Shown: one piece after another, positions 2,648 to 63,733 of the stretch
Position numbering within the stretch: the first letter of the stretch is position 1
How the letters are laid out: each line of letters opens with the position of its first letter
NCBI GenBank assembly: GCA_003142595.1
Contig: PLMU01000003.1
Location: forward strand, 70,501 to 134,500
Origin: Phycisphaerales bacterium
GTDB lineage: Bacteria; Planctomycetota; Phycisphaerae; Sedimentisphaerales; UBA12454
Length of the DNA stretch: 64,000 nt
Direction: 5' to 3'
Position numbers and translations under genes: made by a program
The notes under the pieces: model-generated
Told to the model about the DNA's origin: nothing
Database searches by the model: none
What the model saw: the letters and a program-made list of their open reading frames with translations, nothing else

Positions 2648-5600
2648 ATGGCCACGATGAGCAATTCGAATGGATTTATGGATCGAAACGAAAAAAGCGG
2701 TATGTATAATTGGCAGGGTTCTGGTAATTCCAGGCCCAAAGGCTTGAAGATAACTCAGTTTTTCTCCACGCCTGCGGTTCATCCGTTCGACCAGCTCGAA
2801 TGGGAAACAAGGCAGGCAAAAATCACCGGCGACGGCGGCGAAGTAGTCTTCGAACAGAACGACGTCGAAGTGCCCGCTTCCTGGAGTCAGCTTGCCACAA
2901 AGGTTGTCGTCAGCAAATACTTCTACGGCGATATGGATACCGGCCATCGTGAAAACTCAGTCAAGCAGCTTATTCACCGGGTTTGTCGAACTATCGCCGA
3001 CAGAGGACACAAAGACGGATACTTCGCTACCCAGACAGATACGGAAAACTTCTATAACGAACTTGTCTGGCTGTGCGTCAATCAATACGGCTCATTCAAT
3101 TCTCCGGTTTGGTTCAACGTCGGGTTAAAAGACGTTTACGGCATTGAAGGCAGCGAACACAACTGGCACTGGGACCTCAAACAAAATAAAGCGATGCCCT
3201 GCAAAAGCAGTTACGAATATCCGCAGGCCTCGGCCTGTTTCATCCAGTCCGTAAAGGACACGATGGAAGATATTATGAAGCTTGCCGCAAGTGAAGCTAT
3301 GCTCTTTAAGCACGGCTCAGGAACCGGCACAGACCTTTCAACCCTCCGCAGCAGCAAAGAGAAACTTGCCGGCGGCGGAAAGCCATCGGGTCCACTGAGC
3401 TTTATGCGCGTTTACGACCAAATCGCTGCCGTTGTAAAATCCGGCGGAAAAACAAGACGCGCCGCAAAAATGCAATCATTAATGGTAACTCATCCGGATA
3501 TTAAGGAATTTATCTCCGCTAAGATGGAAGAAGAGAAAAAAGCCCGCGCTCTAATCAGGGAAGGATACGGCGGGCCTTTCAACAACGACGCTTACAACAG
3601 TGTGATGTTCCAGAACTCAAACCTGTCGGTCAGAGTTACCGATGAGTTTATGGAAGCGGTTGAAAAAGACGATACATGGACAACCCGCGAAGTTACCAGC
3701 GGCAAACCTTCGGTAAAATACAAGGCAAACGAGCTTATGGACTTAATTGCCGAAGCGACAAGGCTTTGCGGCGACCCGGGCATCCAGTATCATTCCACAA
3801 TTAACAGATGGCACACCTGCCCGAATTCCGGCGAAATCCACGCCTCCAATCCGTGCAGCGAATATATGTTCCTCGACGATTCGGCCTGCAACCTTGCCTC
3901 GCTCAACCTGATGAAGTTCAGAAAAGAAGATGGCTCGTTCGACGTGGAAAGATTCAAGACTGCGATACGAATTTACATCATCGCTCAGGAAATTCTCGTC
4001 GATAACGGCAGCTACCCGAATTCAATGATTACGGAAAACAGTCATAACTTCCGCGCTTTGGGATTAGGTTACGCAAATCTCGGCTGTCTTATGATGAGTC
4101 TTGCCCTGGCCTATGACAGCGATGAGGCAAGAACCTGGGCATCGGCGATAAGTGCAATCCTTACTGGAACTGCGTATATTACAAGCGCTGAAATCGCCGC
4201 CATAAAAGGCCCATTTGAAAAATACCAGTTAAACGGTCAGCCTATGCTGAACGTAATCAATATGCACCGCGAGCATTGCAGAAACATCTCAGAAGTGCAG
4301 TGCCCCGATTATCTGCTCAGTGCAGCAAGAGACGCATGGGACCAGGCGCTTGACGCAGGTTCAAAGTTCGGATTCAGAAACGCACAGGTTACAGTTCTTG
4401 CTCCGACAGGCACTATCGGCTTTATGATGGACTGTGACACAACGGGAGTTGAGCCGGATATTGCGCTTGTAAAGTACAAACTTCTGGCCGGCGGCGGAAT
4501 CTTCAAAATCGTCAACAAAACCGTCCCGATGGCGCTGGAAAGAATCGGCTATAGCGCAGAAGACATTAAACATATCTGCGATGACATCGATAAAGATGAT
4601 ACAATTGAAACAAGCAAAAAACTTAATAAGGAACATTTGTCGATATTCGATTGTGCTTTCAAGCCGCAAAAAGGCTCCCGCAGCATACATTATATGGCTC
4701 ATATTAAAATGATGGCCGCGGTTCAGCCGTTCATCAGCGGCGCAATCAGCAAAACCATTAATATGTCTAAAGAAACAACTGCTGAAGAGGTCCGCTCTGC
4801 GTATATGGAAGGCTGGAAACTTGGTTTAAAGGCAGTCGCAATTTATCGCGACGGCTCAAAACTGCTTCAGCCGGTAAAAACCAATGAACATACGGACGAT
4901 TCTAAGGAAGAATTTAAAAAGCCCATCGCTACCGCCAAACCGTATAGGCGAAGGCTGCCGGAAACCAGGAAAAGTATCACGCACAAATTTTCCGTTATCG
5001 GCCATGAAGGTTATTTAACGGTCGGCCTGTATGATGACGGCCAGCCGGGCGAACTGTTTATCACTATGGCCAAGGAAGGCAGCACGGTCGGCGGCTTGAT
5101 GGATGTCGTTGGCACCTGCGTTTCGATGGCCCTGCAATATGGTGTGCCGCTGATTACGCTTGTCGATAAGTTCAGACACGCAAGGTTTGAGCCGGCAGGA
5201 ATGACTTCAAACAAAAAAATCCCATTCGCAAAGAGTCTGATTGACTATATCTTCTGCTGGATGGGTTGCGAATTTATCCCCGGCTACGCGGAAAAGAACA
5301 CGCCGAACCGTTCGGAAGGCAATTCGCCGGACAATAAAACTACAACTACGGCAAAGACCCTTGTCGAAAAAACAAAAGACCTTGCCAAAAAAATCGCCGA
5401 GGCCAAGTCTATCCAGCCAAAACCGCCAGTAAAACCTATTGACGAGGATTCATTGTCGCATCGGCACGAAAAAAGCAGATTGGCCGATTTAGCCGACAGG
5501 ACTATCGCGATGGTAACTTCAATCGTCAAAGGCGACAGCGACATACAGGCTGAGGCCGCCGCAGTCCAGCAGTTTAACGCCCAGTTCGAGCATTTTCAGG

Positions 5601-5698
5601 ATGATGCGCCGGTCTGCGATATCTGCGGCTCGATTACCGTCCGCAACGGCTCGTGCTACAAATGCTTTAACTGCGGCAATTCAATGGGCTGCAGCTAA
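2648..5698 (+). CDS. nrdJ: Adenosylcobalamin-dependent (class II) ribonucleoside-diphosphate reductase
   Basis: Reduces ribonucleotides to deoxyribonucleotides using adenosylcobalamin, so it is oxygen-independent. The ten-stranded barrel is recognised by ACFIQSVKDTME, the loop FKHGSGTGTDLS and the active-site stretch NPCSEYMFLDDSACNLASLNL near residues 400-420. The barrel end is marked by APTGTIGFMMDCDTTGVEPD. The C-terminal extension has the TSCPD-like region (MDVVGTCVSMALQYG) and ends in a Cys-rich tail, CDICG...CYKCFNCG, which shuttles reducing equivalents. At 1016 aa it is of the long NrdJ type. The start is uncertain: ATG 2648 lies 3 bases after GGGAGG, while ATG 2600 and ATG 2657 are alternatives. 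The gene stands alone behind two NrdR boxes. Confidence 0.93.
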   Translation: MATMSNSNGFMDRNEKSGMYNWQGSGNSRPKGLKITQFFSTPAVHPFDQLEWETRQAKITGDGGEVVFEQNDVEVPASWSQLATKVVVSKYFYGDMDTGHRENSVKQLIHRVCRTIADRGHKDGYFATQTDTENFYNELVWLCVNQYGSFNSPVWFNVGLKDVYGIEGSEHNWHWDLKQNKAMPCKSSYEYPQASACFIQSVKDTMEDIMKLAASEAMLFKHGSGTGTDLSTLRSSKEKLAGGGKPSGPLSFMRVYDQIAAVVKSGGKTRRAAKMQSLMVTHPDIKEFISAKMEEEKKARALIREGYGGPFNNDAYNSVMFQNSNLSVRVTDEFMEAVEKDDTWTTREVTSGKPSVKYKANELMDLIAEATRLCGDPGIQYHSTINRWHTCPNSGEIHASNPCSEYMFLDDSACNLASLNLMKFRKEDGSFDVERFKTAIRIYIIAQEILVDNGSYPNSMITENSHNFRALGLGYANLGCLMMSLALAYDSDEARTWASAISAILTGTAYITSAEIAAIKGPFEKYQLNGQPMLNVINMHREHCRNISEVQCPDYLLSAARDAWDQALDAGSKFGFRNAQVTVLAPTGTIGFMMDCDTTGVEPDIALVKYKLLAGGGIFKIVNKTVPMALERIGYSAEDIKHICDDIDKDDTIETSKKLNKEHLSIFDCAFKPQKGSRSIHYMAHIKMMAAVQPFISGAISKTINMSKETTAEEVRSAYMEGWKLGLKAVAIYRDGSKLLQPVKTNEHTDDSKEEFKKPIATAKPYRRRLPETRKSITHKFSVIGHEGYLTVGLYDDGQPGELFITMAKEGSTVGGLMDVVGTCVSMALQYGVPLITLVDKFRHARFEPAGMTSNKKIPFAKSLIDYIFCWMGCEFIPGYAEKNTPNRSEGNSPDNKTTTTAKTLVEKTKDLAKKIAEAKSIQPKPPVKPIDEDSLSHRHEKSRLADLADRTIAMVTSIVKGDSDIQAEAAAVQQFNAQFEHFQDDAPVCDICGSITVRNGSCYKCFNCGNSMGCS

Positions 5699-5778
5699 AA
5701 GGCCAAAATAAAGAATAAAAGAGAAGCTGGGTCGACAAATTACTCACGATCCGGCTGTTAAAATCTACAAAAAATGCG

Positions 5779-5806
5779 TTGACACCTCTTTTTTGGCCGT
5801 TATAAT
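5779..5806 (+). promoter_or_regulatory. Near-consensus sigma-70 promoter of rplM-rpsI
   Basis: A perfect TTGACA (5779-5784), a 16-base spacer and a perfect TATAAT (5801-5806) lie 33 bases before the rplM start. Transcription would begin near 5813. This is the strongest promoter match in the window and fits a ribosomal protein operon. Confidence 0.85.
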
Positions 5807-5838
5807 ACTTCGTTTCCTAAACATTTAAGAAAGAATCT

Positions 5839-6267
5839 ATGAAGAGTTTTTTAGCTAAAAAAGAACAAATTCAGCGAAAATGGCATATAGTTGACGCCGA
5901 TGGGGCGATTCTGGGCAGATTAGCCGCCAAAATAGCGCCGATTTTGATGGGCAAAACAAAGCCGATTTACACGCCATCCGTTGATACCGGCGATTTTGTC
6001 ATTGTCATAAACGCCGAAGGAATAAGACTTACCGGCAAAAAGGCCCAGGCCAAGTTGTACGACTACTACACATTTTATCCCGGCGGACATAAATATGTCA
6101 CCTTTGAGGATTTGATGAAAAGAAAGCCTGAAAAAGTCGTCGAGCTTGCCGTAAAGAGAATGCTGCCAAAGACCGCTCTGGGCGAAGATATGTTTAAGAA
6201 ATTAAAGGTTTATCGCGGTACGAATCATAAACATGCCGCGCAGCAGCCTGAAAAAATCGAATTATAA
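5839..6267 (+). CDS. rplM: 50S ribosomal protein L13
   Basis: Structural component of the large ribosomal subunit that binds 23S rRNA early in assembly. The 142-residue protein shows the family features: WHIVDADGAILGRLAA near the N-terminus, the GD-F-VVIN core (GDFVIVINAEGIRLTGKKA) and the C-terminal MLPKTALG motif followed by KLKVYRGTNHKH. Its length matches bacterial L13. It is followed after 23 bases by rpsI, the usual rplM-rpsI pair, and the two share the promoter just upstream. Confidence 0.97.
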   Translation: MKSFLAKKEQIQRKWHIVDADGAILGRLAAKIAPILMGKTKPIYTPSVDTGDFVIVINAEGIRLTGKKAQAKLYDYYTFYPGGHKYVTFEDLMKRKPEKVVELAVKRMLPKTALGEDMFKKLKVYRGTNHKHAAQQPEKIEL

Positions 6268-6290
6268 ATAATTTTACGGAAACTTAAAAT

Positions 6291-6770
6291 ATGGCAGAAA
6301 CTCCAGCAAACACAAATACCCCTCTGGCAGGATTAAAGGTCCCGGCCACTGCAGCGCAGCCTGCCCAAAAGCCCAAGGCAAAAGATATTTATACCTGGGG
6401 AACCGGCAGAAGAAAAACATCCGTCGCAAGGGTCCGAATCGCACCGGGAAAGGGCGAGCTTAAAATAAATAACAGAGAGCTCGACAAATTCTTCACGAGA
6501 CCTCAGGATATTAGTAATGTCATCGCTCCATTGAAGGCGACCAAGACTGAAAAGAGTCTTGATATCCTTGTCAATGTCAAAGGCGGCGGAATTACCGGCC
6601 AAAGCGGCGCTATTATGCTTGGAATCGCGAGGGCATTGAAGATTTACGACCCGACTTTGCTTCCGGCACTTAGAGACGGTGGTTTCCTGACCCGTGACGG
6701 CAGGATGGTCGAAAGGAAAAAGCCTGGACAGTCCGGCGCCAGAAGGAGATACCAGTTCTCAAAACGTTAA
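6291..6770 (+). CDS. rpsI: 30S ribosomal protein S9
   Basis: Component of the small-subunit head; its C-terminal tail reaches the P-site tRNA. The conserved start of the fold, YTWGTGRRKTSVARVRI, begins at about residue 34. It follows an Ala/Pro/Thr-rich extension of some 30 residues that most S9 proteins lack. The family C-terminus is intact: LRDGGFLTRDGRMVERKKPG and the final RRRYQFSKR. It is the second gene of the rplM-rpsI operon, and an intrinsic terminator follows 30 bases later. Confidence 0.97.
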   Translation: MAETPANTNTPLAGLKVPATAAQPAQKPKAKDIYTWGTGRRKTSVARVRIAPGKGELKINNRELDKFFTRPQDISNVIAPLKATKTEKSLDILVNVKGGGITGQSGAIMLGIARALKIYDPTLLPALRDGGFLTRDGRMVERKKPGQSGARRRYQFSKR

Positions 6771-6799
6771 TTGCAAATTACCTTCAGGATTATTACAAT

Positions 6800-6830
6800 G
6801 GCCGCGATACGAGAACGCGGCCTTTTTTTT
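6800..6830 (+). terminator. Intrinsic terminator after rpsI
   Basis: Perfect 7-bp stem GGCCGCG (6800-6806) / CGCGGCC (6816-6822), 9-base loop, then eight T (6823-6830). It separates rpsI from argC, whose ribosome-binding site begins just after the T run. Confidence 0.9.
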
Positions 6831-6842
6831 GGAGATTTTAAA

Positions 6843-7847
6843 ATGTTAAATGTCGCTATTATAGGTGCCAGCGGATACACCGGAGCCGAGGCTATCGAAA
6901 TTTTGCTCCGCCATCCGCAGGCCAAACTTGCCTATCTTACCGCTCTGCCGGAAGAATGCGGAAATGTCGCAGACGTTTTTCCGCGATTCAAGGGACGATG
7001 TTCACTTGATATCGAACCGCTTCAGATGAATAAACTCATAGACAAGGCAAAAATCGTTCTGTGCTGCCTGCCGCACAAGGTATCGATGGAATTTGTACCT
7101 AACCTGCTCAAGGCGGGCTTGAAAGTTATCGACTTCAGCGCGGACTATCGAATCAAAGATGTCAAAGTCTATGAAAAATATTACCAGCCGCACAGCGATA
7201 AGGAAAATCTCAAGCACGCAGTCTATGGTCTTTGCGAACTGAACCGCGATAAAATTAAGGACGCAAAACTTATCGCCAACCCCGGCTGTTTCCCGACAAG
7301 TTTCATTCTCGGCACAGCTCCTCTTTTGAAAAACAATCTCATCAAAGGCACTGCGATTGTGAACTCCGTTACAGGCACCAGCGGCGCCGGCAAAAATCCA
7401 TCGAAGAATTTCCATTTTCCGAATATGAACGAAAATTTCTATGCTTACAGCATTGGCAAACATCGTCATCAGCCTGAGATGGAACAGATTGCAGGCGAAA
7501 TCACAGGCAAGAGCTTTGAAGTCCTGTTCCAGCCGCACGTCGGCCCATTCGATTACGGAATACTGTCAACGATTTATTGCGAGCCGAAAGAAAAAATCAC
7601 AGCGGAAAAACTAACTGAATTGTATAAGGAATTTTACAAAAATGAGCGTTTTGTGCAGGTGCTTAATACTGCCCCGATGCTCAAAGATATTGCCAAGACA
7701 AATTATTGCCAGATTTATCCGGCTGTATGCAAGGACAAGATTGTAATTTTCAGTGCCATAGACAACCTGATAAAAGGCGCTTCCGGCCAGGCTATCCAGA
7801 ATATGAACATTATGTATGGTTTCGATGAAACCGCAGGACTTTTATAG
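6843..7847 (+). CDS. argC: N-acetyl-gamma-glutamyl-phosphate reductase
   Basis: Third step of arginine biosynthesis: NADPH-dependent reduction of N-acetylglutamyl phosphate to the semialdehyde. The N-terminal Rossmann motif is NVAIIGASGYTGAE. The catalytic cysteine lies in LIANPGCFPTSFILG, followed by NSVTGTSGAGK. The C-terminus VIFSAIDNLIKGASGQAIQNMNIMYG is typical. The 334-residue length is normal. ATG 6843 was chosen because it has GGAG 8 bases upstream and starts directly at the nucleotide-binding strand; the longer frame would run into the rpsI terminator. The nitrilase-family gene follows after 2 bases and argJ after that, so the three are probably one operon. Confidence 0.95.
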   Translation: MLNVAIIGASGYTGAEAIEILLRHPQAKLAYLTALPEECGNVADVFPRFKGRCSLDIEPLQMNKLIDKAKIVLCCLPHKVSMEFVPNLLKAGLKVIDFSADYRIKDVKVYEKYYQPHSDKENLKHAVYGLCELNRDKIKDAKLIANPGCFPTSFILGTAPLLKNNLIKGTAIVNSVTGTSGAGKNPSKNFHFPNMNENFYAYSIGKHRHQPEMEQIAGEITGKSFEVLFQPHVGPFDYGILSTIYCEPKEKITAEKLTELYKEFYKNERFVQVLNTAPMLKDIAKTNYCQIYPAVCKDKIVIFSAIDNLIKGASGQAIQNMNIMYGFDETAGLL

Positions 7848-35381: not shown

Positions 35382-36458
35382 TCAGACGGTTTTTCTTCGT
35401 CTGTAAATAAATATTCCGCCAAGCGTCAAAAGACAAATCGTCGCCGGCTCGGGCACCGGGTCGAGCAGAAAGGCATGATCCTGCCCGCCACGATATCCAT
35501 ACCCCACAATTTGCCCGGAGTCGTTAATAGCAGTTGCCGACTCTAACGTCCAGTCCGAGGCCGGGTCAATCAGGGTATTCAGGTCAATCATCGTCGAGCC
35601 GCTGCAGAGAAAGGCATGAGGGCCACCGGCGGCGATATCAGCCTCGCCCACGACCTGCCCGCTGTCGTTGATGCCATTGGCAAAGCTATTCGTCCCGCCG
35701 AGTGTGCCCAGGTCAATCATCTTCGAGCCGCTGTAGAGAAAGGCGCGATAGCCATAGTTACTGTTAGACCAGCCCACGATCTGCCCGCTTGCGTTGATGC
35801 CCCAGGCATAGCTGTCCCCGTTATATACGAATGCACCGAGGTCAATCATCGTCGAGCCGCTGTAGAGAAAGGCGTGATAAGAATCGTGAGTGGCAGCCCA
35901 GCCCACAATCTGCCCGCTGTCGTTGATGCCATGGGCAGCGCTGTCCCTTCCGCCGAGTGTGCCCAGGTCGGTCATCGTCGAGCCGCTGTAGAGAAAAGCA
36001 TGCTCAGCGGCATTGCCGGTAGTGTAAGAATAACCCACGACCTGCCCGTTTGCGTTGATGCCTATGGCCCCGCTCCACGTCCCGCCGAATGTGCCCAGGT
36101 CGGTCATCGTCGAGCCGCTGTAGAGAAAGGCATGCTCCGCAACATTGCCTGTTGTATAAGCATGGCCCACGACCTGCCCGCTGTTGTTGATACCATCGGC
36201 CCCGCTCCACATTCCGCCGAGTGTTCCGAGGTCGGTCATCGTCGAGCCGCTGTAGAGAAAGGCACGATAAGCAAACTCACCGGCGGCGGTATTAGCATAA
36301 CCCACAACCTGCCCGCTTGCATTGATGCTATTGGCCCAGCTCCCTGTTCCGCTGAGTATGCCCAGGTCGGTAATTGTATATTGTGTTACTGCCATCACCT
36401 GCCCGGAGCCAACTAACATTAAAACACCGGCCATCATAATAATAAATTGCTTTTTCAT
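35382..36458 (-). CDS. HAF-repeat protein with PEP-CTERM sorting signal
   Basis: A secreted repeat protein. It has a signal peptide (MKKQFIIMMAGVLMLVGSGQVMA) and about seven repeats of 45-50 residues of the HAF type, each with AFLYSGSTM-[TI]-DLG followed by GIN-[AD]-SGQ-[VI]-VG. The C-terminal tail VPEPATICLLTLGGIFIYRRRK is a PEP-CTERM signal, cut by an exosortase and used to place proteins in an exopolysaccharide or surface layer. The DNA repeats with it: the segment coding for LYSGSTM recurs about every 140-160 bases. HAF repeats probably form a beta-propeller. The gene is monocistronic. Confidence 0.88.
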   Translation of the reverse strand: MKKQFIIMMAGVLMLVGSGQVMAVTQYTITDLGILSGTGSWANSINASGQVVGYANTAAGEFAYRAFLYSGSTMTDLGTLGGMWSGADGINNSGQVVGHAYTTGNVAEHAFLYSGSTMTDLGTFGGTWSGAIGINANGQVVGYSYTTGNAAEHAFLYSGSTMTDLGTLGGRDSAAHGINDSGQIVGWAATHDSYHAFLYSGSTMIDLGAFVYNGDSYAWGINASGQIVGWSNSNYGYRAFLYSGSKMIDLGTLGGTNSFANGINDSGQVVGEADIAAGGPHAFLCSGSTMIDLNTLIDPASDWTLESATAINDSGQIVGYGYRGGQDHAFLLDPVPEPATICLLTLGGIFIYRRRKTV

Positions 36459-52211: not shown

Positions 52212-52823
52212 ATGTCACCAAAACAAAAAATGGACTATCTGATGTTCAAAGTTCGCGGCCGATTGGTAAAAGTTGACCCCGATATCTATTACAAAATCAG
52301 AAACGCAATGCACGAACTACCTTACAGAAAATACAACGGCGGTATTATCGCAATGCGGCTTAATGATGGCTATCCGATAATCGTCTGCGGAAAAGAAAAA
52401 CCGGAAAGATATATCCTGCTCTCGCGGTTTGTAATGAACGCAGAAGAAGGCGAAATCGTTGACCATATAAACGGCGATCCGCTCGACAATCGCCGATGTA
52501 ATCTGCGAATCGTAACTCACCGTCAAAACAGTCTGAACAGAAAATCAAAGACTTCCACTGGTTTTGTTGGTGTTACAATTAATCGCACCCACGGAAAGAC
52601 TTATTGCCTGGGACGGTTCCAGCTCAGCACCGGCAAAGCGCCAGCATTTAATCTACCCGACAGTCCCGAAAATCGAATCATCGCGGCCTTTGCCCACGAT
52701 AAATTTGTCCTGCAGGCCGGCGATGAAGAATACGCGCCGCTGAATTTCCCCTGCTTTAAATTTGAGCCGTTCAGAAGCTTTCTGCTGGCAGAAGATTTGA
52801 AAAAATACAGGGAAATTAACTGA
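52212..52823 (+). CDS. HNH endonuclease-type protein with AP2-like C-terminal part
   Basis: The HNH nuclease motif is seen in VDHINGDPLDNRRCNLRIVTHRQN (about residues 84-107), with the His-Asn-Asn/His pattern of phage and homing HNH enzymes. A Lys-rich linker leads to STGFVGVTINRTHGKTYCLGRF, resembling the AP2/NUMOD DNA-binding region often joined to HNH. The tail ends in a helical segment. 203 aa. It stands in a repeat-rich region with no target intron or intein beside it. It may be a selfish nuclease or a domesticated DNA-binding protein. Confidence 0.85.
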   Translation: MSPKQKMDYLMFKVRGRLVKVDPDIYYKIRNAMHELPYRKYNGGIIAMRLNDGYPIIVCGKEKPERYILLSRFVMNAEEGEIVDHINGDPLDNRRCNLRIVTHRQNSLNRKSKTSTGFVGVTINRTHGKTYCLGRFQLSTGKAPAFNLPDSPENRIIAAFAHDKFVLQAGDEEYAPLNFPCFKFEPFRSFLLAEDLKKYREIN

Positions 52824-52869: not shown

Positions 52870-53109
52870 ATGAACGATGGGAATGAAAGAAATTTCGGTC
52901 CGCAGCCTATCGCCGGCATTATGACAAAGCTCAATTTAAAGCCGCACGATCTTGTAGCGGCTTTGCCGCCGCAGCAGCTTACGCATAAAATGGTTTCAAG
53001 GGCCTGTAAAGGCAGAAAGCTGACCGACAAAAGCAAATCAAAGGTTCTAATCGCCCTAAACCTTGTCACCAAAAAGAACTACGCACTAAGCGATCTTTTT
53101 AACTACTAA
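52870..53109 (+). CDS. Small helix-turn-helix-like protein, 79 aa
   Basis: A basic protein with a helical core: IAGIMTKLNLKPHDLVAALP, then QLTHKMVSRACKGRKLTDKSK, ending YALSDLFNY. The pattern resembles a helix-turn-helix in which THKMVSRACKGR is the recognition helix, as in small DNA-binding proteins of several phyla. ATG 52870 follows GAAGAAG. It lies just before the broken tmk and about 47 bases downstream of the HNH gene. Likely DNA-binding, role unknown. Confidence 0.7.
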   Translation: MNDGNERNFGPQPIAGIMTKLNLKPHDLVAALPPQQLTHKMVSRACKGRKLTDKSKSKVLIALNLVTKKNYALSDLFNY

Positions 53110-53141
53110 CGACGGTCTCTTGCTAATCGGCTATAATTGCG

Positions 53142-53160
53142 GTATTCTAATCTGATTATG
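53142..53160 (+). repeat. 19-bp direct repeat, left copy
   Basis: GTATTCTAATCTGATTATG, ending in the start codon of the tmk remnant. Identical to 55308-55326 at the start of the complete tmk. Upstream homology extends about 25 bases further, from CTCTTGC (53117 and 55283). Confidence 0.9.
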
Positions 53161-53241
53161 ATTATGAAACTTAAATCACGTTTTATAGTTCTCGACGGCC
53201 CGGACGGCTGCGGCAAGAGTTCACAGGTTAAGCTTCTTGAT
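53158..53241 (+). pseudogene. tmk: 5' remnant of thymidylate kinase
   Basis: Reads M-I-M-K-LKSRFIVLDGPDGCGKSSQVKLLD, the first beta strand, P-loop and helix of a thymidylate kinase. Homology then stops abruptly, and the frame runs into sequence antisense to the dGTPase end. The same segment of the complete tmk at 55324 reads LKGQFIVFDGPDGSGKSTQIKLLE. The remnant has the GC-richer codon use of the chromosome, while the complete gene is AT-rich. It is therefore most likely the resident gene, cut at about codon 28 by the inserted DNA. Confidence 0.85.
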
Positions 53242-53263
53242 AATGGAAAAATACTATTACCCT

Positions 53264-54445
53264 CTATACCATTGCTTGAGGAACGAATAATTGCAGGAAA
53301 GAACGTACTGCAAAAGTATCCGTCATACCTGCTATAAAATCTAAAATGATCAATTCATCGGGGTCTAAGGCGTCGTATATTTTTCCCATATCTTTTTTTA
53401 CAAATTCATAGAGTATTCTGTAAACAGCTGGATCTTTTTCTGCATCTTCATCATAATTATTAAATCTACTCGTTTCTTGTAATTTCTTTAGTAAGGCCTT
53501 AAAGAGTGATGTTATAGTGTTTTGGGCTTGGGTTCTATATCCCTCTGATTTTTCGCTATGGTATATCTTCTCAACATTAAAACTGATCATGCTGAGTAAT
53601 AAATCAGCTTTTTCTTGAGAAAGAGCTATATAGTCTTTTTTATGGCTTTCTTTGATAATATCTTCTAAAAAAGCACCTATTATTTGGCCATTGTTTTCGC
53701 CTAATTCTTTATTTATTTTCTCAGGAACTTGTGATATTGTTATAATATTCGCTGCAATTGCGTCTTCAATATCTTTGCCGCAATAAGCTATCTTATCAAT
53801 CAATCGGACAATACAACCTTCTAAAGTTGTAGGATTTCCAGCATTTTCTTTATTTCTTATCGCTTCCAAATTTTTAAGTTTGTCACCTGGTACAAGTTTA
53901 CGGGTTTTGTAATCCTCTCCACAATGAGAAATAATGCCATCCCTTACATCCCAGGTTAAATTAAGGCCTGGAGTTTCTCTGTCAAGTTTGGCTATTTTAT
54001 CGACAACTCTAAGACCATATATCTCATGTTGAAATTTCGGTATGATCTGTTTTAATTTGGGATTCTTGCAAGTTTCAATAATCTCTTGTAGAAAACCCTC
54101 TCCTTGATGACCAAAAGGAGCATGCCCAATATCATGTGCCAAACCAATAGCTTCTGTTAAATCTTCATTCAGCCCTAAACATCTAGCCACCGTTCTTGCT
54201 TCTGAAGCAACTAATAATACATGATCCATACGAGTAGAAACATGATCATTTTGTGGAAAATAAAAAACTTGTGTTTTATGCCGTAAACGCCTAAATGCTT
54301 GTGAATATATTATCCTGTGAACATCACGTTGAAAATCTGTACGAAACTCATCCTGCCCAAGAGGCTTATTCCTTCCTCTCTGACTACCTATTGTTGCATA
54401 TGGGCTAGAATAGAGTTCTCTCTCTGATTTGATATATGTTGACAT
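53264..54445 (-). CDS. dGTP triphosphohydrolase-like HD-domain protein
   Basis: An HD-domain dNTPase that splits dGTP (or other dNTPs) to the nucleoside and triphosphate. The metal-binding residues are seen in STRMDHVLLV (His75) and GLAHDIGHAPFGHQGE (His104-Asp105). The N-terminal RTDFQRDVHRIIYSQAFRRL and KTQVF segments are typical of dGTPases. A later Asp lies in CIVRLIDKIAYCGKDIEDAI. 393 aa. A GGGGAG lies 5 bases before the start. The gene is AT-rich unlike its surroundings and begins inside the end of the deoxyribosyltransferase-like gene (58-base overlap). SAMHD1-like dNTP depletion is a known anti-phage strategy. Confidence 0.9.
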   Translation of the reverse strand: MSTYIKSERELYSSPYATIGSQRGRNKPLGQDEFRTDFQRDVHRIIYSQAFRRLRHKTQVFYFPQNDHVSTRMDHVLLVASEARTVARCLGLNEDLTEAIGLAHDIGHAPFGHQGEGFLQEIIETCKNPKLKQIIPKFQHEIYGLRVVDKIAKLDRETPGLNLTWDVRDGIISHCGEDYKTRKLVPGDKLKNLEAIRNKENAGNPTTLEGCIVRLIDKIAYCGKDIEDAIAANIITISQVPEKINKELGENNGQIIGAFLEDIIKESHKKDYIALSQEKADLLLSMISFNVEKIYHSEKSEGYRTQAQNTITSLFKALLKKLQETSRFNNYDEDAEKDPAVYRILYEFVKKDMGKIYDALDPDELIILDFIAGMTDTFAVRSFLQLFVPQAMV

Positions 54446-55059
54446 CTCATCTCCCCAAAAAGCAATATTAAAAGTTCCGTAATCTCATTCAATGTTTTTT
54501 TAGAAGATAAATATTCACGAATAGTTCGACCATTTTTCTTTGCAGTTTCAAATTTTGGGGAAACTAAAGAATCAGCATCGTTAGAGGATTTTTTAAATTT
54601 TTCGGCAAAAGCAATAGGGATGTCTTTATAATTTTCTACAAACTCAAAATTAGATAGCCCCATTACTAAAGGATTACAGTTGCCTTGAATCAAAGAACGA
54701 TCATCGTTTTTGAATATCACTAAGGATTTGTTATTGGCCCAAGCTATACCAGCTTCAACCATTGCCCCCTCATCAGGAACTCGCCCATTAAGATTTAATG
54801 CTAAACCATCTGAATCTATAATTTCAAAAACATCGAGTGAGAATATTGCCATATTTAATATTATTGCGGCTTGGAGCGGATGTATATTTTTGGCAATAAA
54901 AGCCGGTAATAATTTAGCAAATTCCAGCCCATCCTCTTGTGGTAAAAAATAATCATAACCAGCAGAATCTAAAGCTGATGCTATGCTGGCCATTTCTTCA
55001 CGTTCTTTGGGGTTAAATAAGGGGCCTGCACAATATATTTTGTATTGAGATTTTTTCAT
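54388..55059 (-). CDS. Nucleoside 2-deoxyribosyltransferase-like protein
   Basis: The N-terminal 150 residues show the fold of nucleoside 2-deoxyribosyltransferases, which cut or exchange the base of deoxynucleosides. The visible parts are KIYCAGPLFNPKEREEM, then FLPQEDGL, and GRVPDEGAMVEAGIAWANNKSL, where Asp and Glu (DEG...E) occupy the catalytic region. The C-terminal 70 residues are a helical extension not typical of the family. Related folds also hydrolyse nucleotides in defence systems. 223 aa. It is AT-rich, translationally overlapped with the dGTPase gene, and divergent from the complete tmk, with 264 bases of gene-free AT-rich DNA between. Confidence 0.82.
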   Translation of the reverse strand: MKKSQYKIYCAGPLFNPKEREEMASIASALDSAGYDYFLPQEDGLEFAKLLPAFIAKNIHPLQAAIILNMAIFSLDVFEIIDSDGLALNLNGRVPDEGAMVEAGIAWANNKSLVIFKNDDRSLIQGNCNPLVMGLSNFEFVENYKDIPIAFAEKFKKSSNDADSLVSPKFETAKKNGRTIREYLSSKKTLNEITELLILLFGEMRCQHISNQRENSILAHMQQ

Positions 55060-55307
55060 AGCGACTCAAAGGAATATTATAACGTCTATCGAAATAGTTA
55101 GCAAAGGGATTCAAAACTATCTTTTTATAATTATTTTCTTAATAGATTGAGGAGAATTATAGCCGAGAATAAGGTAGAAGGCAAGGGAAATCCGTCTTTT
55201 CTGCTCCACCTCAATAAATCAGGGTAGCTAAGGGCTTACATTAAAACTTCACTGAGATTTTGCAAAGATAAATTGTGGCTGCCTCTTGCCAGTTGGCAAT
55301 GATTACT

Positions 55308-55326
55308 GTATTCTAATCTGATTATG
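55308..55326 (+). repeat. 19-bp direct repeat, right copy
   Basis: Identical to 53142-53160 and likewise ends in the tmk ATG. Just before it, TTGCC-agtt-GGCAA (55286-55298) forms a small hairpin that is degenerate in the left copy. Confidence 0.9.
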
Positions 55327-56025
55327 CTTAGGAATTTAAAAGGACAATTTATAGTTTTTGACGGGCCGGACGGTAGCGGGAAGAGTACACAAATTAAGCT
55401 ACTTGAAGAATATTTAAGCAAATTCAATCTTGATGTGGTAACTACGAATGATCCGGGGGGAACTCCTATTGGAAACCAAATACGGCGATTGTTAAAGTAT
55501 GATGCGAAGAGCAAAATGGATGTGCATACAGAACTTATGCTTTTCATGGCTTCTCGATCCCAGCTTGTAGCCGATGTCATTTTACCCGCTCTTAAAGACC
55601 ATAAAGTGGTTCTTTGTGATAGATTTGTTTCTGCGACATGTGCCTATCAGGGTGCGGGAGGTTATGATCCCAAAAAAATAATTGATTTAGCCAAATATGT
55701 AATAGATGGACATTGGCCAGATTTGACAATAATCTTGGATTTGCCTGTTGAGGAAGGTCGCCTAAGAATTGGCCAGAAACCTGGCCAGAAAACCAAGACA
55801 AATCATGAAGATGCATGCCAACCTTATCTTCCTAAATTTGAAAATACTACAACTGACTTATTTGACTCAAGAACTGTTGAATATCACCGTAAGGTAAGAA
55901 AAATATTTCAAAATTTGCATGATTATTATCCTAAACCAGTTGAAATACTTGATGTTAGCAACACAAGCCAACTTGAGGTGAACGAGAAAATAGTTCAGAT
56001 AATAAAAAAACACTTCAATTTCTAA
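55324..56025 (+). CDS. tmk: Thymidylate kinase, complete (probably xenologous copy)
   Basis: Phosphorylates dTMP to dTDP. P-loop FDGPDGSGKST (13-23), the DR-type motif VVLCDRFVSATCAYQGAGG, the substrate region NDPGGTPIGNQIRRLL and a LID-like Gly/Lys segment (GQKPGQKTKTNHED) are all present. 233 aa. The whole gene is AT-rich with codons unlike those of holB, which starts 6 bases downstream. The first codons duplicate the broken tmk at 53158. The likely history is replacement of the resident gene by an incoming cassette whose own tmk restores function. Confidence 0.95.
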   Translation: MLRNLKGQFIVFDGPDGSGKSTQIKLLEEYLSKFNLDVVTTNDPGGTPIGNQIRRLLKYDAKSKMDVHTELMLFMASRSQLVADVILPALKDHKVVLCDRFVSATCAYQGAGGYDPKKIIDLAKYVIDGHWPDLTIILDLPVEEGRLRIGQKPGQKTKTNHEDACQPYLPKFENTTTDLFDSRTVEYHRKVRKIFQNLHDYYPKPVEILDVSNTSQLEVNEKIVQIIKKHFNF

Positions 56026-56031
56026 AAATAT

Positions 56032-57147
56032 ATGAATCTTTCCGAAATTTTTTGTCAGGCCAAAGCTGTTGATACACTGACGCGGGCGTTTGGTGCCGGC
56101 AAATCGGCGCACGCTTATATCTTCGAAGGTATCGAGGGCGTTGGAAAATATACAACCGCCCAGGCTTTCGCCAAACTCCTGCTTTGCCAGTCGCCTGTAA
56201 AAAACGACTCTTGTGGCAAATGTCCATCGTGCACGGCCTTTGAGGCCGAGTCGCATCCTGATTTTCATCATGTCTATAAAGAATTAAATAAAATCAGTAA
56301 ACTCCCTGAGCACAGGAAAAAACAGGTTTTTGAACTTCCTATTTATGTCATCAAAGAATTTCTCATTGAGAAAGTCCAGTTAAAGCCGAGTTTTTCAGCG
56401 TCGAAGGTTTTTGTCGTAAGCGAGACAGAGGAGCTTAATGCCGAAAGCCAAAACGCGCTTTTAAAGGTTCTCGAGGAGCCGCCGAACAAAAGTTTTATTA
56501 TTTTGCTTTGCACGAAACTTGATAACCTGCTTCCGACGACAAGGTCGCGATGCCAGATTGTTCACTTCGGCCCGTTAAGCGAAAACATAATAATTGAAAA
56601 ACTTTCCGCCAAAGGGATTGACAAGGCCGAGTCGAAATTCTGGGCGCGGTTATTTGGCGGCAGTTTAGGACAGGCGGAATTTTATTCGAATCCCCAGCCT
56701 TCGTTTTATAAAATTAAAAAAGATTTTTTAAATCGCATAAGCAAACTTCAGCTTGGCGAGGTAGTCGATTTTGCGCAATGGATAAATTCGACCGCTTCGG
56801 AGTTTACGACTGCCTGGCTGAAACTGAATCCCGACGCAAATAAGTCCGATCTCGGCAGACAGGCCAAAAGAGCTTTTGTTTCGATTCTTATCTCGGCTTT
56901 TACCGATGCGATGAAGATGTCTTTTACCGGAGCTCCTGCTGCGCAGGAAAAAATGACGAATTTCGACCAGCCGGGTGCGATAAAACAGCTTGCCGAAAGG
57001 TTTGCCCCCGAGGCTTGTGCCGAGCGGATTGAGCGTTTCTTCGAATCAATCCGGTATATCGACGCTGCGGTCAATGAAAAGCTTGTTTTCGAGCATTTGT
57101 TGCTCAATTGCACAGAATCTGATATAGTTAAGGAACGTAGCCACTAA
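56032..57147 (+). CDS. holB: DNA polymerase III delta' subunit
   Basis: Clamp-loader subunit. The AAA+ domain begins MNLSEIFCQAKAVDTL and has a Walker A-like IEGVGKYTTAQAFA. The zinc-binding cysteines are in CQSPVKNDSCGKCPSC, and the sensor/SRC-type region is TELEELNAESQ-like (SETEELNAESQNALLKVLEEPP) followed by TTRSRCQIVHF. The C-terminal collar domain is helical. 371 aa. It follows tmk in the usual bacterial order tmk-holB-yaaT. Base composition returns to the chromosomal norm here. Confidence 0.92.
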   Translation: MNLSEIFCQAKAVDTLTRAFGAGKSAHAYIFEGIEGVGKYTTAQAFAKLLLCQSPVKNDSCGKCPSCTAFEAESHPDFHHVYKELNKISKLPEHRKKQVFELPIYVIKEFLIEKVQLKPSFSASKVFVVSETEELNAESQNALLKVLEEPPNKSFIILLCTKLDNLLPTTRSRCQIVHFGPLSENIIIEKLSAKGIDKAESKFWARLFGGSLGQAEFYSNPQPSFYKIKKDFLNRISKLQLGEVVDFAQWINSTASEFTTAWLKLNPDANKSDLGRQAKRAFVSILISAFTDAMKMSFTGAPAAQEKMTNFDQPGAIKQLAERFAPEACAERIERFFESIRYIDAAVNEKLVFEHLLLNCTESDIVKERSH

Positions 57148-61167: not shown

Positions 61168-61815
61168 TTATTGTGTATCGTCGGGGTGTTCTTGTCCGAT
61201 TTTAATATCACTGAAACAATCGGGGGCGTGGTGTTTTAAAATTTTAAATATCTCCGTGCAGGCAATCCTGATTTCCCACTGGGCTTTGGGACTTGTGCGG
61301 ATTTTTATAATATGCCGCCATTCGCGTAAATTGGCCGTTACGACAATCTCGCTTGTGCAGGCGTTTGGCAATACAAACCTTGCGTCTTCTCTCTTTAACC
61401 CCTTATCCCGCCATTTTTTATACATCAGCCTGATAGTTTCCATATCGGTTTTAAATTCATCGACATCTTTTGCGGGCAGAGTTTGGGGCACAACGAAACT
61501 GAAATTTTCCTCATCGACATATCTTTGCGACTGCTGGGAGACGCTCATCAATCTGTGGCGGACGAGCTGATGGGTCATCGCGCGGGAGCAGTTTTCAATC
61601 CTGAATGTCGCACAGGCGTGCTCAAGGGGAGAATCGTGGCCCATTTTTATAAGTCTCTGTATGAAATCGCTGGCGGAGTTTGCGCCGATTTTGTCGTAAC
61701 TTAGATAACAGGTTCTGCCGGCCTCTTCAATGAGCTTTTCGGCGTCAGGGGTTATCGCAAGTAATGTAACTTTTAATTGATGATTATTTTCGTTCATATT
61801 TAAATTACCGCTCAT
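61168..61815 (-). CDS. thyX: FAD-dependent thymidylate synthase
   Basis: Makes dTMP from dUMP with methylene-tetrahydrofolate, using FAD and NADPH. The ThyX motif is complete: RHRLMSVSQQSQRY (86-99), matching RHRxxSxNxxSxRY with Gln for Asn. HDSPLEHACATFRIE and LPNACTSEIVVTANLREW, with the His/Arg cluster, are also typical. 215 aa. The start is Met1 or Met7. Its product is the substrate of the thymidylate kinase encoded 5 kb away. Confidence 0.95.
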   Translation of the reverse strand: MSGNLNMNENNHQLKVTLLAITPDAEKLIEEAGRTCYLSYDKIGANSASDFIQRLIKMGHDSPLEHACATFRIENCSRAMTHQLVRHRLMSVSQQSQRYVDEENFSFVVPQTLPAKDVDEFKTDMETIRLMYKKWRDKGLKREDARFVLPNACTSEIVVTANLREWRHIIKIRTSPKAQWEIRIACTEIFKILKHHAPDCFSDIKIGQEHPDDTQ

Positions 61816-61873
61816 TTACATTCGCGGCTCTGAACCCCGCCATAGTGATGGCGGGGCTAACCGCTAAATATTT

Positions 61874-63733
61874 TTAAATTTGATTTATATCCAATTTACC
61901 TGCGGCGACGAGGGCTATTTTTACATTTCCAAACGGCGCGCTAATCGCAAAGCCGGCGACATTATCCTTTATTTTGTCCATCAATTCCACGGCAATCTGG
62001 ACGCCGGCTTTTCTGGCGTCGCTGCCGTCTTTTGTGCGGGACATTTTTTCGAGAATTTCGGGCGGAACGACAACGCCGGGGACTTCATTGGCCATAAACT
62101 CGGCGTTTTTATAGTTTGTAAACGGCCAAATGCCGGCGATTACAGGAATTTTACAGTCTTTTGTCAGCTCAAGGAATTTAAATAAACTTTTTTCATCGAA
62201 GACCGGCTGAGTAATCGCAAATTCGGCGCCGGCGGCGACTTTTTTTTTGTATCTTTGAATTTCCCTGTCTAAATCGGAGGCGACGGGATTTGCGCCAACG
62301 CCAATGACGAGCGAGGTCGGGATAGAAAGGCTGTTGCCTGCGATATCGACGCCGTGGTTCAAATCGCTGACTACTTTTGTGAGCGTAATCGAATCAAGGT
62401 CGAAAACGGCAGTGGCGTCCGGATATTCCCCGAGTTTCGGCGGGTCGCCTGTGATTATCAGGACATTTTGTAAATCAATCGCCTGGATGCCGAGCAGGTC
62501 GGACTGCATCGCAATGATATTTCTGTCGCGGCAGCAGAAATGCAAAATTGTTTCGATATCGCAAAGCTGTTTTATTTTTATGGCCGTTATCATTGCGCTT
62601 AATCTCGAACTTGCGCGTGGGCCGTCTGGAATATTTACCGCATCAATGCCCATTTGGGCGCAGAGTTTTACTTTTTCGATAAGGCCTGAAACATCGGTGC
62701 CTCTTGGCGGAGAAATCTCTATCGTATAAATTTTCTGGCCTGCGGCGAGTTTTGCACCGAGTTTAGATTTATTTTTCAGCTCAACTGGTTTTTGCCTTGG
62801 GGCCTGCTTTTGAGAAGGTTTAATTTCTATTACGGCAGAGCTTAAATCGGCTTTGTGCAAAGGCCTGACGGCTTTTACCATTTGTTTAATATGTTCGGGA
62901 GTTGTGCCGCAGCAGCCGCCGAGAATTCTAACGCCCTTTTCGTAAAATCTTTTTGCGTATTCTGCCATATATTCCGGCGTACACATATAAATGGTTCTGC
63001 CGTCGATGTTCTGGGGCAGGCCTGCGTTTGGCTGAATCGATATCGGTTTTGTCGTCGCTTTTTTAATTAACTCAATGTTTTCGAGCATTGCGGCCGGGCC
63101 GATAGTGCAATTCAGACCAACGGCGGCAACGTGTTTAAACTCGGAAGCTTTTGCGAGGGCAAATTCGATTCGGTCGCCATAGAGCGTTTCGCCATTTTCG
63201 TTTACCGCCATTTGCGCTACAATCGGAAGAGAGCAAACATCGGCAGCAGTTTTTATTACCAAAAGCAACTCGGCCAGATTGCCAAAAGTTTCCAAAAGCA
63301 GGAAATCAACGCCTGCATCAGCAAGAGCTTTTATCTGTTTTGTGAAAGCATCGATAATTTGTTTTTCAGTTATCAGGCTGCCGGCGGCGATATCGATACC
63401 AAGCGGTCCGAGAGCTCCGGCGACAAGGACTTTGCCTGCGGCGGATTGTTTTGCGATTTTGACGGCGGAAGTATTAATTTGGACGGTTTTGTCGGCAAGG
63501 CCGAATCTTGCGAGCCTGAACTCGTTTGCACCGAAGGTATTTGTCTCGATAAAGTCGCTGCCGGCGGAAATATATAAGTCGTGGATTTGGCCGACGAGCT
63601 GGGGGCGGGAAATATTTAGCTCTTCAAAGCAGGTATTGATAAATACGCCCTTTGTGTAGAGCATTGTGCCCATCGCGCCGTCGCCAAAGACGAGCTGCTT
63701 GCTTAAAAGGTCTGTTAATTTATTTTGTATCAT
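61874..63733 (-). CDS. Bifunctional homocysteine S-methyltransferase / methylenetetrahydrofolate reductase
   Basis: A fusion of two methionine-cycle activities. The N-terminal 290 residues are a homocysteine-binding TIM barrel with LVFGDGAMGTMLY, IETNTFGANEFRL and the zinc ligands (Cys in GLNCTIGPAAM and Cys-Cys in GGCCGTTPEHI). The C-terminal 290 residues resemble MetF: YTIEISPPRGTDVSGL, LHFCCRDRN, VLIITGDPPKLGEYP and EFAITQPVFDEKSLFKFLE. No cobalamin domain is present, so this is the YitJ type, not MetH. 619 aa, normal for the fusion. It supplies methyl-THF or passes methyl groups to homocysteine. It has no operon partner. Confidence 0.93.
   Translation of the reverse strand: MIQNKLTDLLSKQLVFGDGAMGTMLYTKGVFINTCFEELNISRPQLVGQIHDLYISAGSDFIETNTFGANEFRLARFGLADKTVQINTSAVKIAKQSAAGKVLVAGALGPLGIDIAAGSLITEKQIIDAFTKQIKALADAGVDFLLLETFGNLAELLLVIKTAADVCSLPIVAQMAVNENGETLYGDRIEFALAKASEFKHVAAVGLNCTIGPAAMLENIELIKKATTKPISIQPNAGLPQNIDGRTIYMCTPEYMAEYAKRFYEKGVRILGGCCGTTPEHIKQMVKAVRPLHKADLSSAVIEIKPSQKQAPRQKPVELKNKSKLGAKLAAGQKIYTIEISPPRGTDVSGLIEKVKLCAQMGIDAVNIPDGPRASSRLSAMITAIKIKQLCDIETILHFCCRDRNIIAMQSDLLGIQAIDLQNVLIITGDPPKLGEYPDATAVFDLDSITLTKVVSDLNHGVDIAGNSLSIPTSLVIGVGANPVASDLDREIQRYKKKVAAGAEFAITQPVFDEKSLFKFLELTKDCKIPVIAGIWPFTNYKNAEFMANEVPGVVVPPEILEKMSRTKDGSDARKAGVQIAVELMDKIKDNVAGFAISAPFGNVKIALVAAGKLDINQI

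What the first reader, a model, noticed from the sequence alone, without database searches (positions are those of the whole stretch)
53117..56030. Resident tmk cut and replaced by an AT-rich cassette carrying its own tmk
The first ~28 codons of a GC-richer tmk survive at 53158-53241 and stop abruptly. Then follow about 2.8 kb of AT-rich DNA (dGTPase, deoxyribosyltransferase-like gene, complete tmk), and holB resumes normal composition. A perfect 19-bp repeat (53142-53160 and 55308-55326) and about 25 bases of weaker upstream homology sit at both tmk starts. The cassette thus appears to have entered at tmk and restored the essential function with its own copy. This is the logic of elements that land in essential genes, but no integrase or transposase is present.
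Basis: partly seen in the sequence, partly recalled or inferred. Interest (0 to 1): 0.82.

Follow-up and report, generated by a model that had tools for sequence, protein, structure and literature searches.

The report
Enzyme cassette displaced resident thymidylate-kinase gene
In this Phycisphaerae-like genome an AT-rich stretch carrying two nucleotide-degrading enzyme genes cut off the essential thymidylate-kinase gene after 28 codons and put a patchwork replacement behind it, with no integrase in sight, so it looks like ordinary (if rarely so clearly scarred) recombination rather than a specialised mobile element.

Summary
A native tmk promoter plus 28 codons survives at 53117-53240, is followed by about 2.7 kb of the most AT-rich DNA in the window, and is repeated at 79% identity in front of a complete tmk. 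Same-genus genomes show the uninterrupted sORF-tmk-holB order. "The cassette brought its own tmk" holds only in part: the complete tmk is a mosaic with genus-native promoter and first ~36 codons, a core (~55431-55948) of a divergent Tmk type otherwise seen only in one genus of another family, and native-like last codons running into vertical holB. The dGTPase and NDT-like genes are a separate, conserved, overlapping pair found in several phyla, never beside tmk in the loci examined. Two same-genus relatives carry other defence-type genes at this spot. Best reading: integrase-free recombination with incoming DNA, homologous at the tmk 3' end/holB and illegitimate at codon 28, at a small gene-turnover hotspot. 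An integrase element or simple target duplication is less likely but not excluded. The NDT-dGTPase pair may be an undescribed nucleotide-depletion module; a defence role is untested.

The parts
52212..52823 (+). HNH_3 endonuclease gene, a dispersed multicopy family (9 copies in this genome); vertical neighbour
   Evidence: Pfam; copies; orthologue in G003
52870..53109 (+). small conserved ORF (79 aa) directly upstream of tmk in the genus; vertical flank
   Evidence: 70-90% identical at the same place in five same-genus genomes
53117..53240 (+). remnant of the resident tmk: native promoter plus first 28 codons (ATG 53158), then abrupt end
   Evidence: direct repeat; 85% aa identity to G003 tmk; promoter 89% identical to G003
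53241..53263 (.). left junction, apparently illegitimate: resident codon 28 to dGTPase stop codon
53264..54445 (-). dGTPase-like HD phosphohydrolase, 393 aa, catalytic HD motif intact; not the housekeeping dGTPase, which is on contig C16
54388..55059 (-). nucleoside 2-deoxyribosyltransferase-like enzyme (NDT), 223 aa, overlaps dGTPase by 58 bp; DEGxMVEAGIAW motif conserved
   Evidence: Pfam; alignment; model and fold search
55060..55282 (.). AT-rich divergent intergenic region with sigma-70-like sites for NDT (55184-55156 and 55104-55076, minus strand; consensus matches only)
55283..55430 (+). second copy of a genus-type tmk promoter (TTGCCA-17-TATTCT at 55286-55314) plus codons 1 to ~36 of the complete tmk
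55324..56025 (+). complete, mosaic tmk (233 aa)
55431..55948 (+). foreign core of tmk (about codons 36-208), divergent Tmk type shared with genus g15 of another family
   Evidence: chi2 76, 0 of 300 permutations; tree 100/100, AU p 3e-31 against vertical placement
55949..56025 (+). native-like 3' end of tmk; probable homologous crossover zone reaching into holB
   Evidence: 73% nt identity to G003 over the last 15 codons against 33-51% to g15
56032..57147 (+). holB, vertical right flank
   Evidence: 68% aa identity to G003 holB, normal GC3

Best explanation
Foreign DNA replaced part of the chromosome at tmk by recombination, without an integrase. The incoming DNA carried an overlapping dGTPase-NDT gene pair next to a tmk that already had a genus-type promoter and start and a divergent core. 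On the right it was probably joined by homologous recombination in the last codons of tmk or in holB. On the left it was joined illegitimately to codon 28 of the resident tmk, deleting the resident core. This is the pattern of homology-facilitated illegitimate recombination; a circular donor joined by one crossover, followed by deletion of the redundant copy, would look the same. The essential function is kept because the incoming tmk has its own native-type promoter. The cargo probably destroys deoxynucleotides in two steps (dGTPase: dNTP to deoxynucleoside plus triphosphate; NDT: breaks or swaps the base-deoxyribose bond). Shown by sequence: truncation, empty sites, foreign core, mosaic structure, module conservation. 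Inferred: order of events, mechanism of joining, enzyme activities and their purpose.
For: Same-genus genomes G001-G004 have sORF-tmk-holB uninterrupted, G005 has tmk-holB, and G006 has sORF-tmk. The remnant is native and still shows mostly synonymous differences from G003 (pS 0.70, pN 0.11), so the truncation is recent relative to that split. The complete tmk has a genus-type promoter (80% identical to G003, 18-20% to g15), a core with g15 (100/100; AU against family placement p 3e-31) and a native-like 3' end; the mosaic is significant (0 of 300 permutations). The tract is uniformly AT-rich. The NDT-dGTPase pair sits in other genomes at other places without tmk, and 18 such loci show no long direct duplication of flanking DNA, so duplication at the ends is not a property of the module. 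The locus also varies in relatives: type IIG restriction enzyme parts after tmk and before holB in G006; SIR2-like plus XRE gene upstream of sORF in G003. ComEC and DprA are encoded. Hotspots without mobile elements and with recombination at flanking core genes are described in PMC5635113, illegitimate module displacement in PMC5361080, and patchy donor tracts after transformation in PMC13344027.
Against: No genome with the postulated donor arrangement (dGTPase-NDT beside a mosaic tmk) was found. The core's change-over could be an older, separate event. A duplication of the resident start is not formally rejected (AU p 0.073). Competence is not shown by ComEC/DprA alone. The genome is a draft assembly and the left junction is not verified by reads.
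Confidence: 0.58

Rival explanations
1. Insertion with long target duplication: the dGTPase-NDT pair inserted at codon 28 and about 124 bp of tmk promoter and start were duplicated, so the downstream copy restored the gene. The foreign core is then an older, unrelated allele replacement.
For: Geometry fits: about 124-bp repeat, insert between, complete gene downstream. Long (order of 100 bp) target duplications are described for restriction-modification insertions (PMC3874152). Synonymous distance between the two copies (0.43) is the lowest of the set.
Against: The two copies are only 79% identical while the remnant still looks recently constrained. The ML tree puts the complete copy with G003, not with the remnant (AU p 0.073 for sisterhood). 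No long direct flanking duplication at 18 other loci of the same module. Needs a second event for the foreign core.
Confidence: 0.2
2. A small integrative element that targets the start of tmk and carries a replacement promoter and 5' end, moved by an integrase encoded elsewhere; the tmk body is then the resident's.
For: Replacement of the 5' end of a target gene is typical of site-specific elements (general knowledge); the two copies share TTAAGCT and CTTGA near the break. An NDT relative occurs near a tyrosine recombinase on one viral contig, L084.
Against: No integrase in or near the tract. Other copies of the module are at unrelated sites and not at tmk. The body is not resident-type. Same-genus relatives carry different cargo at different points of the locus.
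Confidence: 0.1
3. dGTPase, NDT and the divergent tmk form one functional nucleotide-metabolism cassette, with the new Tmk selected together with the dGTPase (for example because dGTPases of the Clover type sense dTTP).
For: All three act on deoxynucleotides, share low G+C and GC3 and sit together; Clover's CloA dGTPase is activated by dTTP (PMC12265719).
Against: The pair is found without tmk elsewhere; the g15 genomes with the same Tmk type have no NDT match; G024, which has the pair, has an ordinary Tmk.
Confidence: 0.07
4. Assembly or binning artefact at the left junction.
For: Draft genome of 18 contigs, contamination 1.64%; reads not available.
Against: The tract lies inside a 397-kb contig and both flanks are syntenic with relatives. 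The only perfect repeat is 19 bp. The mosaic tmk is unaffected by this.
Confidence: 0.05

Closest known systems
Gene-turnover hotspots without mobile elements, recombined through flanking core genes (Oliveira et al. 2017, PMC5635113); 'minimal mobile elements' of Neisseria (Saunders and Snyder 2002, cited in PMC3898611)
   Same: Different whole-gene cargo between conserved genes, no mobility genes, core-gene alleles recombined alongside
   Different: Here the flanking essential gene itself was truncated and replaced by a mosaic xenologue, leaving a visible 28-codon scar
Homology-facilitated illegitimate recombination, and T6SS effector-immunity module displacement in Vibrio cholerae (PMC5361080, PMC3240628)
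   Same: One homologous anchor, one illegitimate end, remnant of the displaced resident gene
   Different: Target is an essential housekeeping gene rather than an effector; demonstrated experimentally in other species, only inferred here
Insertion of restriction-modification units with long target duplication (Nobusato et al. 2000; Furuta et al. 2010, cited in PMC3874152)
   Same: About 100-bp imperfect repeat bracketing an accessory unit, gene complete downstream
   Different: Copies 79% identical and apparently of different descent; foreign gene core; the module shows no such duplications elsewhere
Clover and other anti-phage dGTPases (PMC12265719)
   Same: Two-gene unit with a dGTPase of the HD superfamily
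   Different: Partner is an NDT-fold enzyme, not a Pol-beta nucleotidyltransferase; by sequence the dGTPase is nearer to PDB 2dqb and the PRK01286-type dGTPases than to the curated anti-phage type
Nucleoside 2-deoxyribosyltransferases (PDB 7o62, 8pqr; Pfam PF05014)
   Same: Fold (Foldseek E 1.6e-6 to 7o62) and conserved DEGxMVEAG motif
   Different: Longer than the solved enzymes (223 against about 150 residues; helical C-terminal extension) and paired with a dGTPase in most loci seen

Membership tests
Mobile-element-free recombination hotspot (PMC5635113) | Different accessory genes between the same conserved genes in relatives | tested here: met
   dGTPase-NDT in G000, type IIG restriction enzyme in G006, SIR2/XRE in G003 just upstream of sORF, none between sORF and holB in G001, G002, G004
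Mobile-element-free recombination hotspot (PMC5635113) | No integrase or transposase | tested here: met
Mobile-element-free recombination hotspot (PMC5635113) | Homologous recombination in the flanking core gene | tested here: met
   Mosaic tmk, 0 of 300 permutations; AU p 3e-31
Mobile-element-free recombination hotspot (PMC5635113) | More accessory genes than expected by a genome-wide model | not tested
   Only seven genus members held; no background rate computed
Homology-facilitated illegitimate recombination | One homologous junction | tested here: inconclusive
   Native-like last ~15 codons of tmk into vertical holB; donor unknown
Homology-facilitated illegitimate recombination | One non-homologous junction with deletion of recipient DNA | tested here: met
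   Codon 28 joined to dGTPase end; resident codons 29 onward not found in the genome
Site-specific integrative element | Integrase gene or recurrent integration at the same site | tested here: not met
Long target duplication | The two repeat copies are each other's closest relatives | tested here: inconclusive
   ML tree separates them; AU p 0.073
Clover (CloA-CloB) | Pol-beta type nucleotidyltransferase partner | tested here: not met
   Partner is PF05014
Anti-phage dGTPase (NF041026) | Score above the curated cut-off | tested here: not met
   132.9 bits against cut-off 400; the PADLOC dGTPase model scores the housekeeping enzyme of G003 higher, 327 against 210 bits
Nucleoside 2-deoxyribosyltransferase (PF05014) | Fold and conserved glutamate motif | tested here: met
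   57.2 bits against cut-off 28.8; DEGxMVEAG motif in all 18 sequences; Foldseek hit 7o62
Nucleoside 2-deoxyribosyltransferase (PF05014) | Transferase or hydrolase activity | not testable with these tools
   needs an enzyme assay

The most novel reading that the evidence does not exclude
The overlapping NDT-dGTPase pair is an undescribed mobile two-enzyme system that irreversibly destroys deoxynucleotides (dGTPase makes the deoxynucleoside, NDT cleaves it so that it cannot be salvaged), probably against phages, and it travels by integrase-free recombination between genomes of several phyla.
Probability: 0.35. Interest if true: 0.65.

Novelty: new variant of a known kind. Interest (0 to 1): 0.5.

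Why it matters
It is a clear fossil of how accessory gene pairs can enter at, and overwrite part of, an essential gene without mobile-element machinery: the scar, the empty sites, the mosaic replacement and the neighbours' alternative cargo can all be seen. It also points to a conserved NDT-dGTPase gene pair that the literature searches made here did not find described and that can be tested directly.

Tried and rejected
Phage origin of tmk: best phage Tmk about 35% identity and no relative in viral contigs. tmk as part of the module: not found beside it elsewhere. Direct duplications around other copies of the module: none of note (L056 has a 58-bp inverted repeat). Defence-island context for other copies: flanks are mostly metabolic genes. 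PADLOC dGTPase hit as evidence of defence: rejected by the housekeeping control. AT-ward bias of the native-like 5' end as proof of a one-piece donor: not significant. Within-genome duplication of the tmk start: disfavoured, not excluded. Searches failed and one search was uninformative.

Full report
What is there. The remnant, the AT-rich tract and the complete tmk are at the stated coordinates. The 124-bp repeat (53117-53240 / 55283-55406, 79%) covers the tmk promoter and first 28 codons and is, one tandem array aside, the only repeat in the window at E <= 1e-5. The tract 53241-55950 is the most AT-rich 2.7 kb of the window (0.354 against mean 0.452, sd 0.017), and GC3 is 0.24-0.28 against 0.49-0.53 in the neighbours.

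Empty sites. Same-genus genomes G001-G004 keep the small ORF, tmk, holB and psp1 in order without the insert; G005 keeps tmk-holB-psp1, with no match to the small ORF in its retrieved stretch. The remnant's 27-28 residues are 85% identical to G003's Tmk and its promoter 89% identical. The own genome has no other match to tmk than the complete gene and the remnant, so the complete gene must carry the function.

The complete tmk is a mosaic. Its promoter is of the genus type (80% to G003 and to the remnant; 18-20% to g15). Its core, about codons 36-208, groups with four genomes of genus g15 in another family (100/100; placing it with the window's family is rejected at p 3e-31). Its last 15 codons are again genus-like (73% nt to G003, 33-51% to g15). 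A two-breakpoint scan places the foreign tract at about window 55431-55948, with 0 of 300 permutations reaching the observed value. In a sample of 392 genomes of the phylum only G000 and three g15 genomes had this Tmk type, while other genera of g15's family have the ordinary type, so g15 itself probably acquired it.

The module. NDT and dGTPase overlap (58 bp here) and form a pair in about 20 genomes, mostly Planctomycetota but also Spirochaetota, Desulfobacteraceae, Hydrogenedentes and Zixibacteria. In a class sample 9 of 298 genomes have the NDT, and the other family members hold only a distant, housekeeping-type dGTPase. Contexts differ and are mostly metabolic, and no copy has tmk next to it. 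In most loci the module is AT-richer than its flanks. The NDT model (mean pLDDT 81) matches solved deoxyribosyltransferases, and the catalytic-type motifs of both enzymes are conserved. One NDT relative lies between a tail-type gene and a tyrosine recombinase on a viral contig. The PADLOC dGTPase model scores a relative's housekeeping enzyme higher (327 against 210 bits), so that hit says nothing about defence.

The locus in relatives. In G006 the two ends of a type IIG restriction-methylation enzyme, one after tmk and one just before holB, lie on two contigs. In G003 a SIR2-like gene and an XRE regulator in AT-rich DNA sit upstream of the small ORF, next to a truncated second copy of the HNH gene. 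In G009 an ankyrin protein of a candidate defence family precedes tmk. This looks like a small turnover hotspot; enrichment against the genome background was not tested.

How it arose. One incoming piece, homologous at the right (tmk end/holB) and illegitimate at the left (codon 28), explains the missing resident core, the native-type promoter of the new gene and the lack of mobility genes. Long target duplication explains the geometry but expects the two 5' copies to be sisters; the ML tree joins the complete copy to G003 instead (AU p 0.073 for sisterhood), while the remnant still shows the substitution pattern of a recently functional gene (pS 0.70, pN 0.11 to G003). The test is weak on about 126 bases and the matter stays open. 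The genome encodes ComEC and DprA, which permits but does not show natural transformation.

Comparison with the literature. Integrase-free hotspots with recombining flanking core genes (PMC5635113), illegitimate displacement leaving remnants (PMC5361080), mosaic transformation tracts (PMC13344027), long target duplications (PMC3874152) and minimal mobile elements (PMC3898611) cover the mechanism. Two full-text searches of the held library for the NDT-dGTPase pair found no paper; subscription papers are not covered. Clover (PMC12265719) is the nearest described two-gene dGTPase system found, but its partner enzyme is unrelated.

Verdict. Real, well supported as a horizontal replacement at an essential gene, ordinary in mechanism as far as can be seen, with an unusually readable scar and a gene pair worth testing.

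Noticed in passing
L066 (G003) 3867-7532: SIR2-like gene, XRE regulator and small ORF in AT-rich DNA between a full HNH gene and a truncated second HNH copy (258-bp repeat, 84%), just upstream of the small ORF and tmk.
   Followed up: partly
L067 59-1540 and L097 2-931 (G006): N- and C-terminal parts of a type IIG restriction enzyme on two contigs, one after tmk and one before holB, suggesting that the gene sits between them.
   Followed up: partly
L003-L006 (G021, G029, G039, G025): Genus g15 has the divergent Tmk type in place at tmk-holB although other genera of its family have the ordinary type; a second in-place displacement.
   Followed up: partly
L084 3971-6933: Viral contig with an NDT relative between a tail-type gene and a tyrosine recombinase, without dGTPase.
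   Followed up: partly
L056 around 4863-6977: 58-bp inverted repeat (88%) flanking the NDT-dGTPase pair in a Desulfobacteraceae genome.
   Followed up: no
window 52212-52823 and eight other places in G000: HNH_3 endonuclease family with 9 copies in this genome, about 10 in G003 and 12 in G009.
   Followed up: no
window 35580-36377: G+C-rich tandem repeat of about 129-bp units.
   Followed up: no
window 61168-63733: ThyX and a homocysteine methyltransferase/MTHFR protein close to tmk; conserved in the genus.
   Followed up: no
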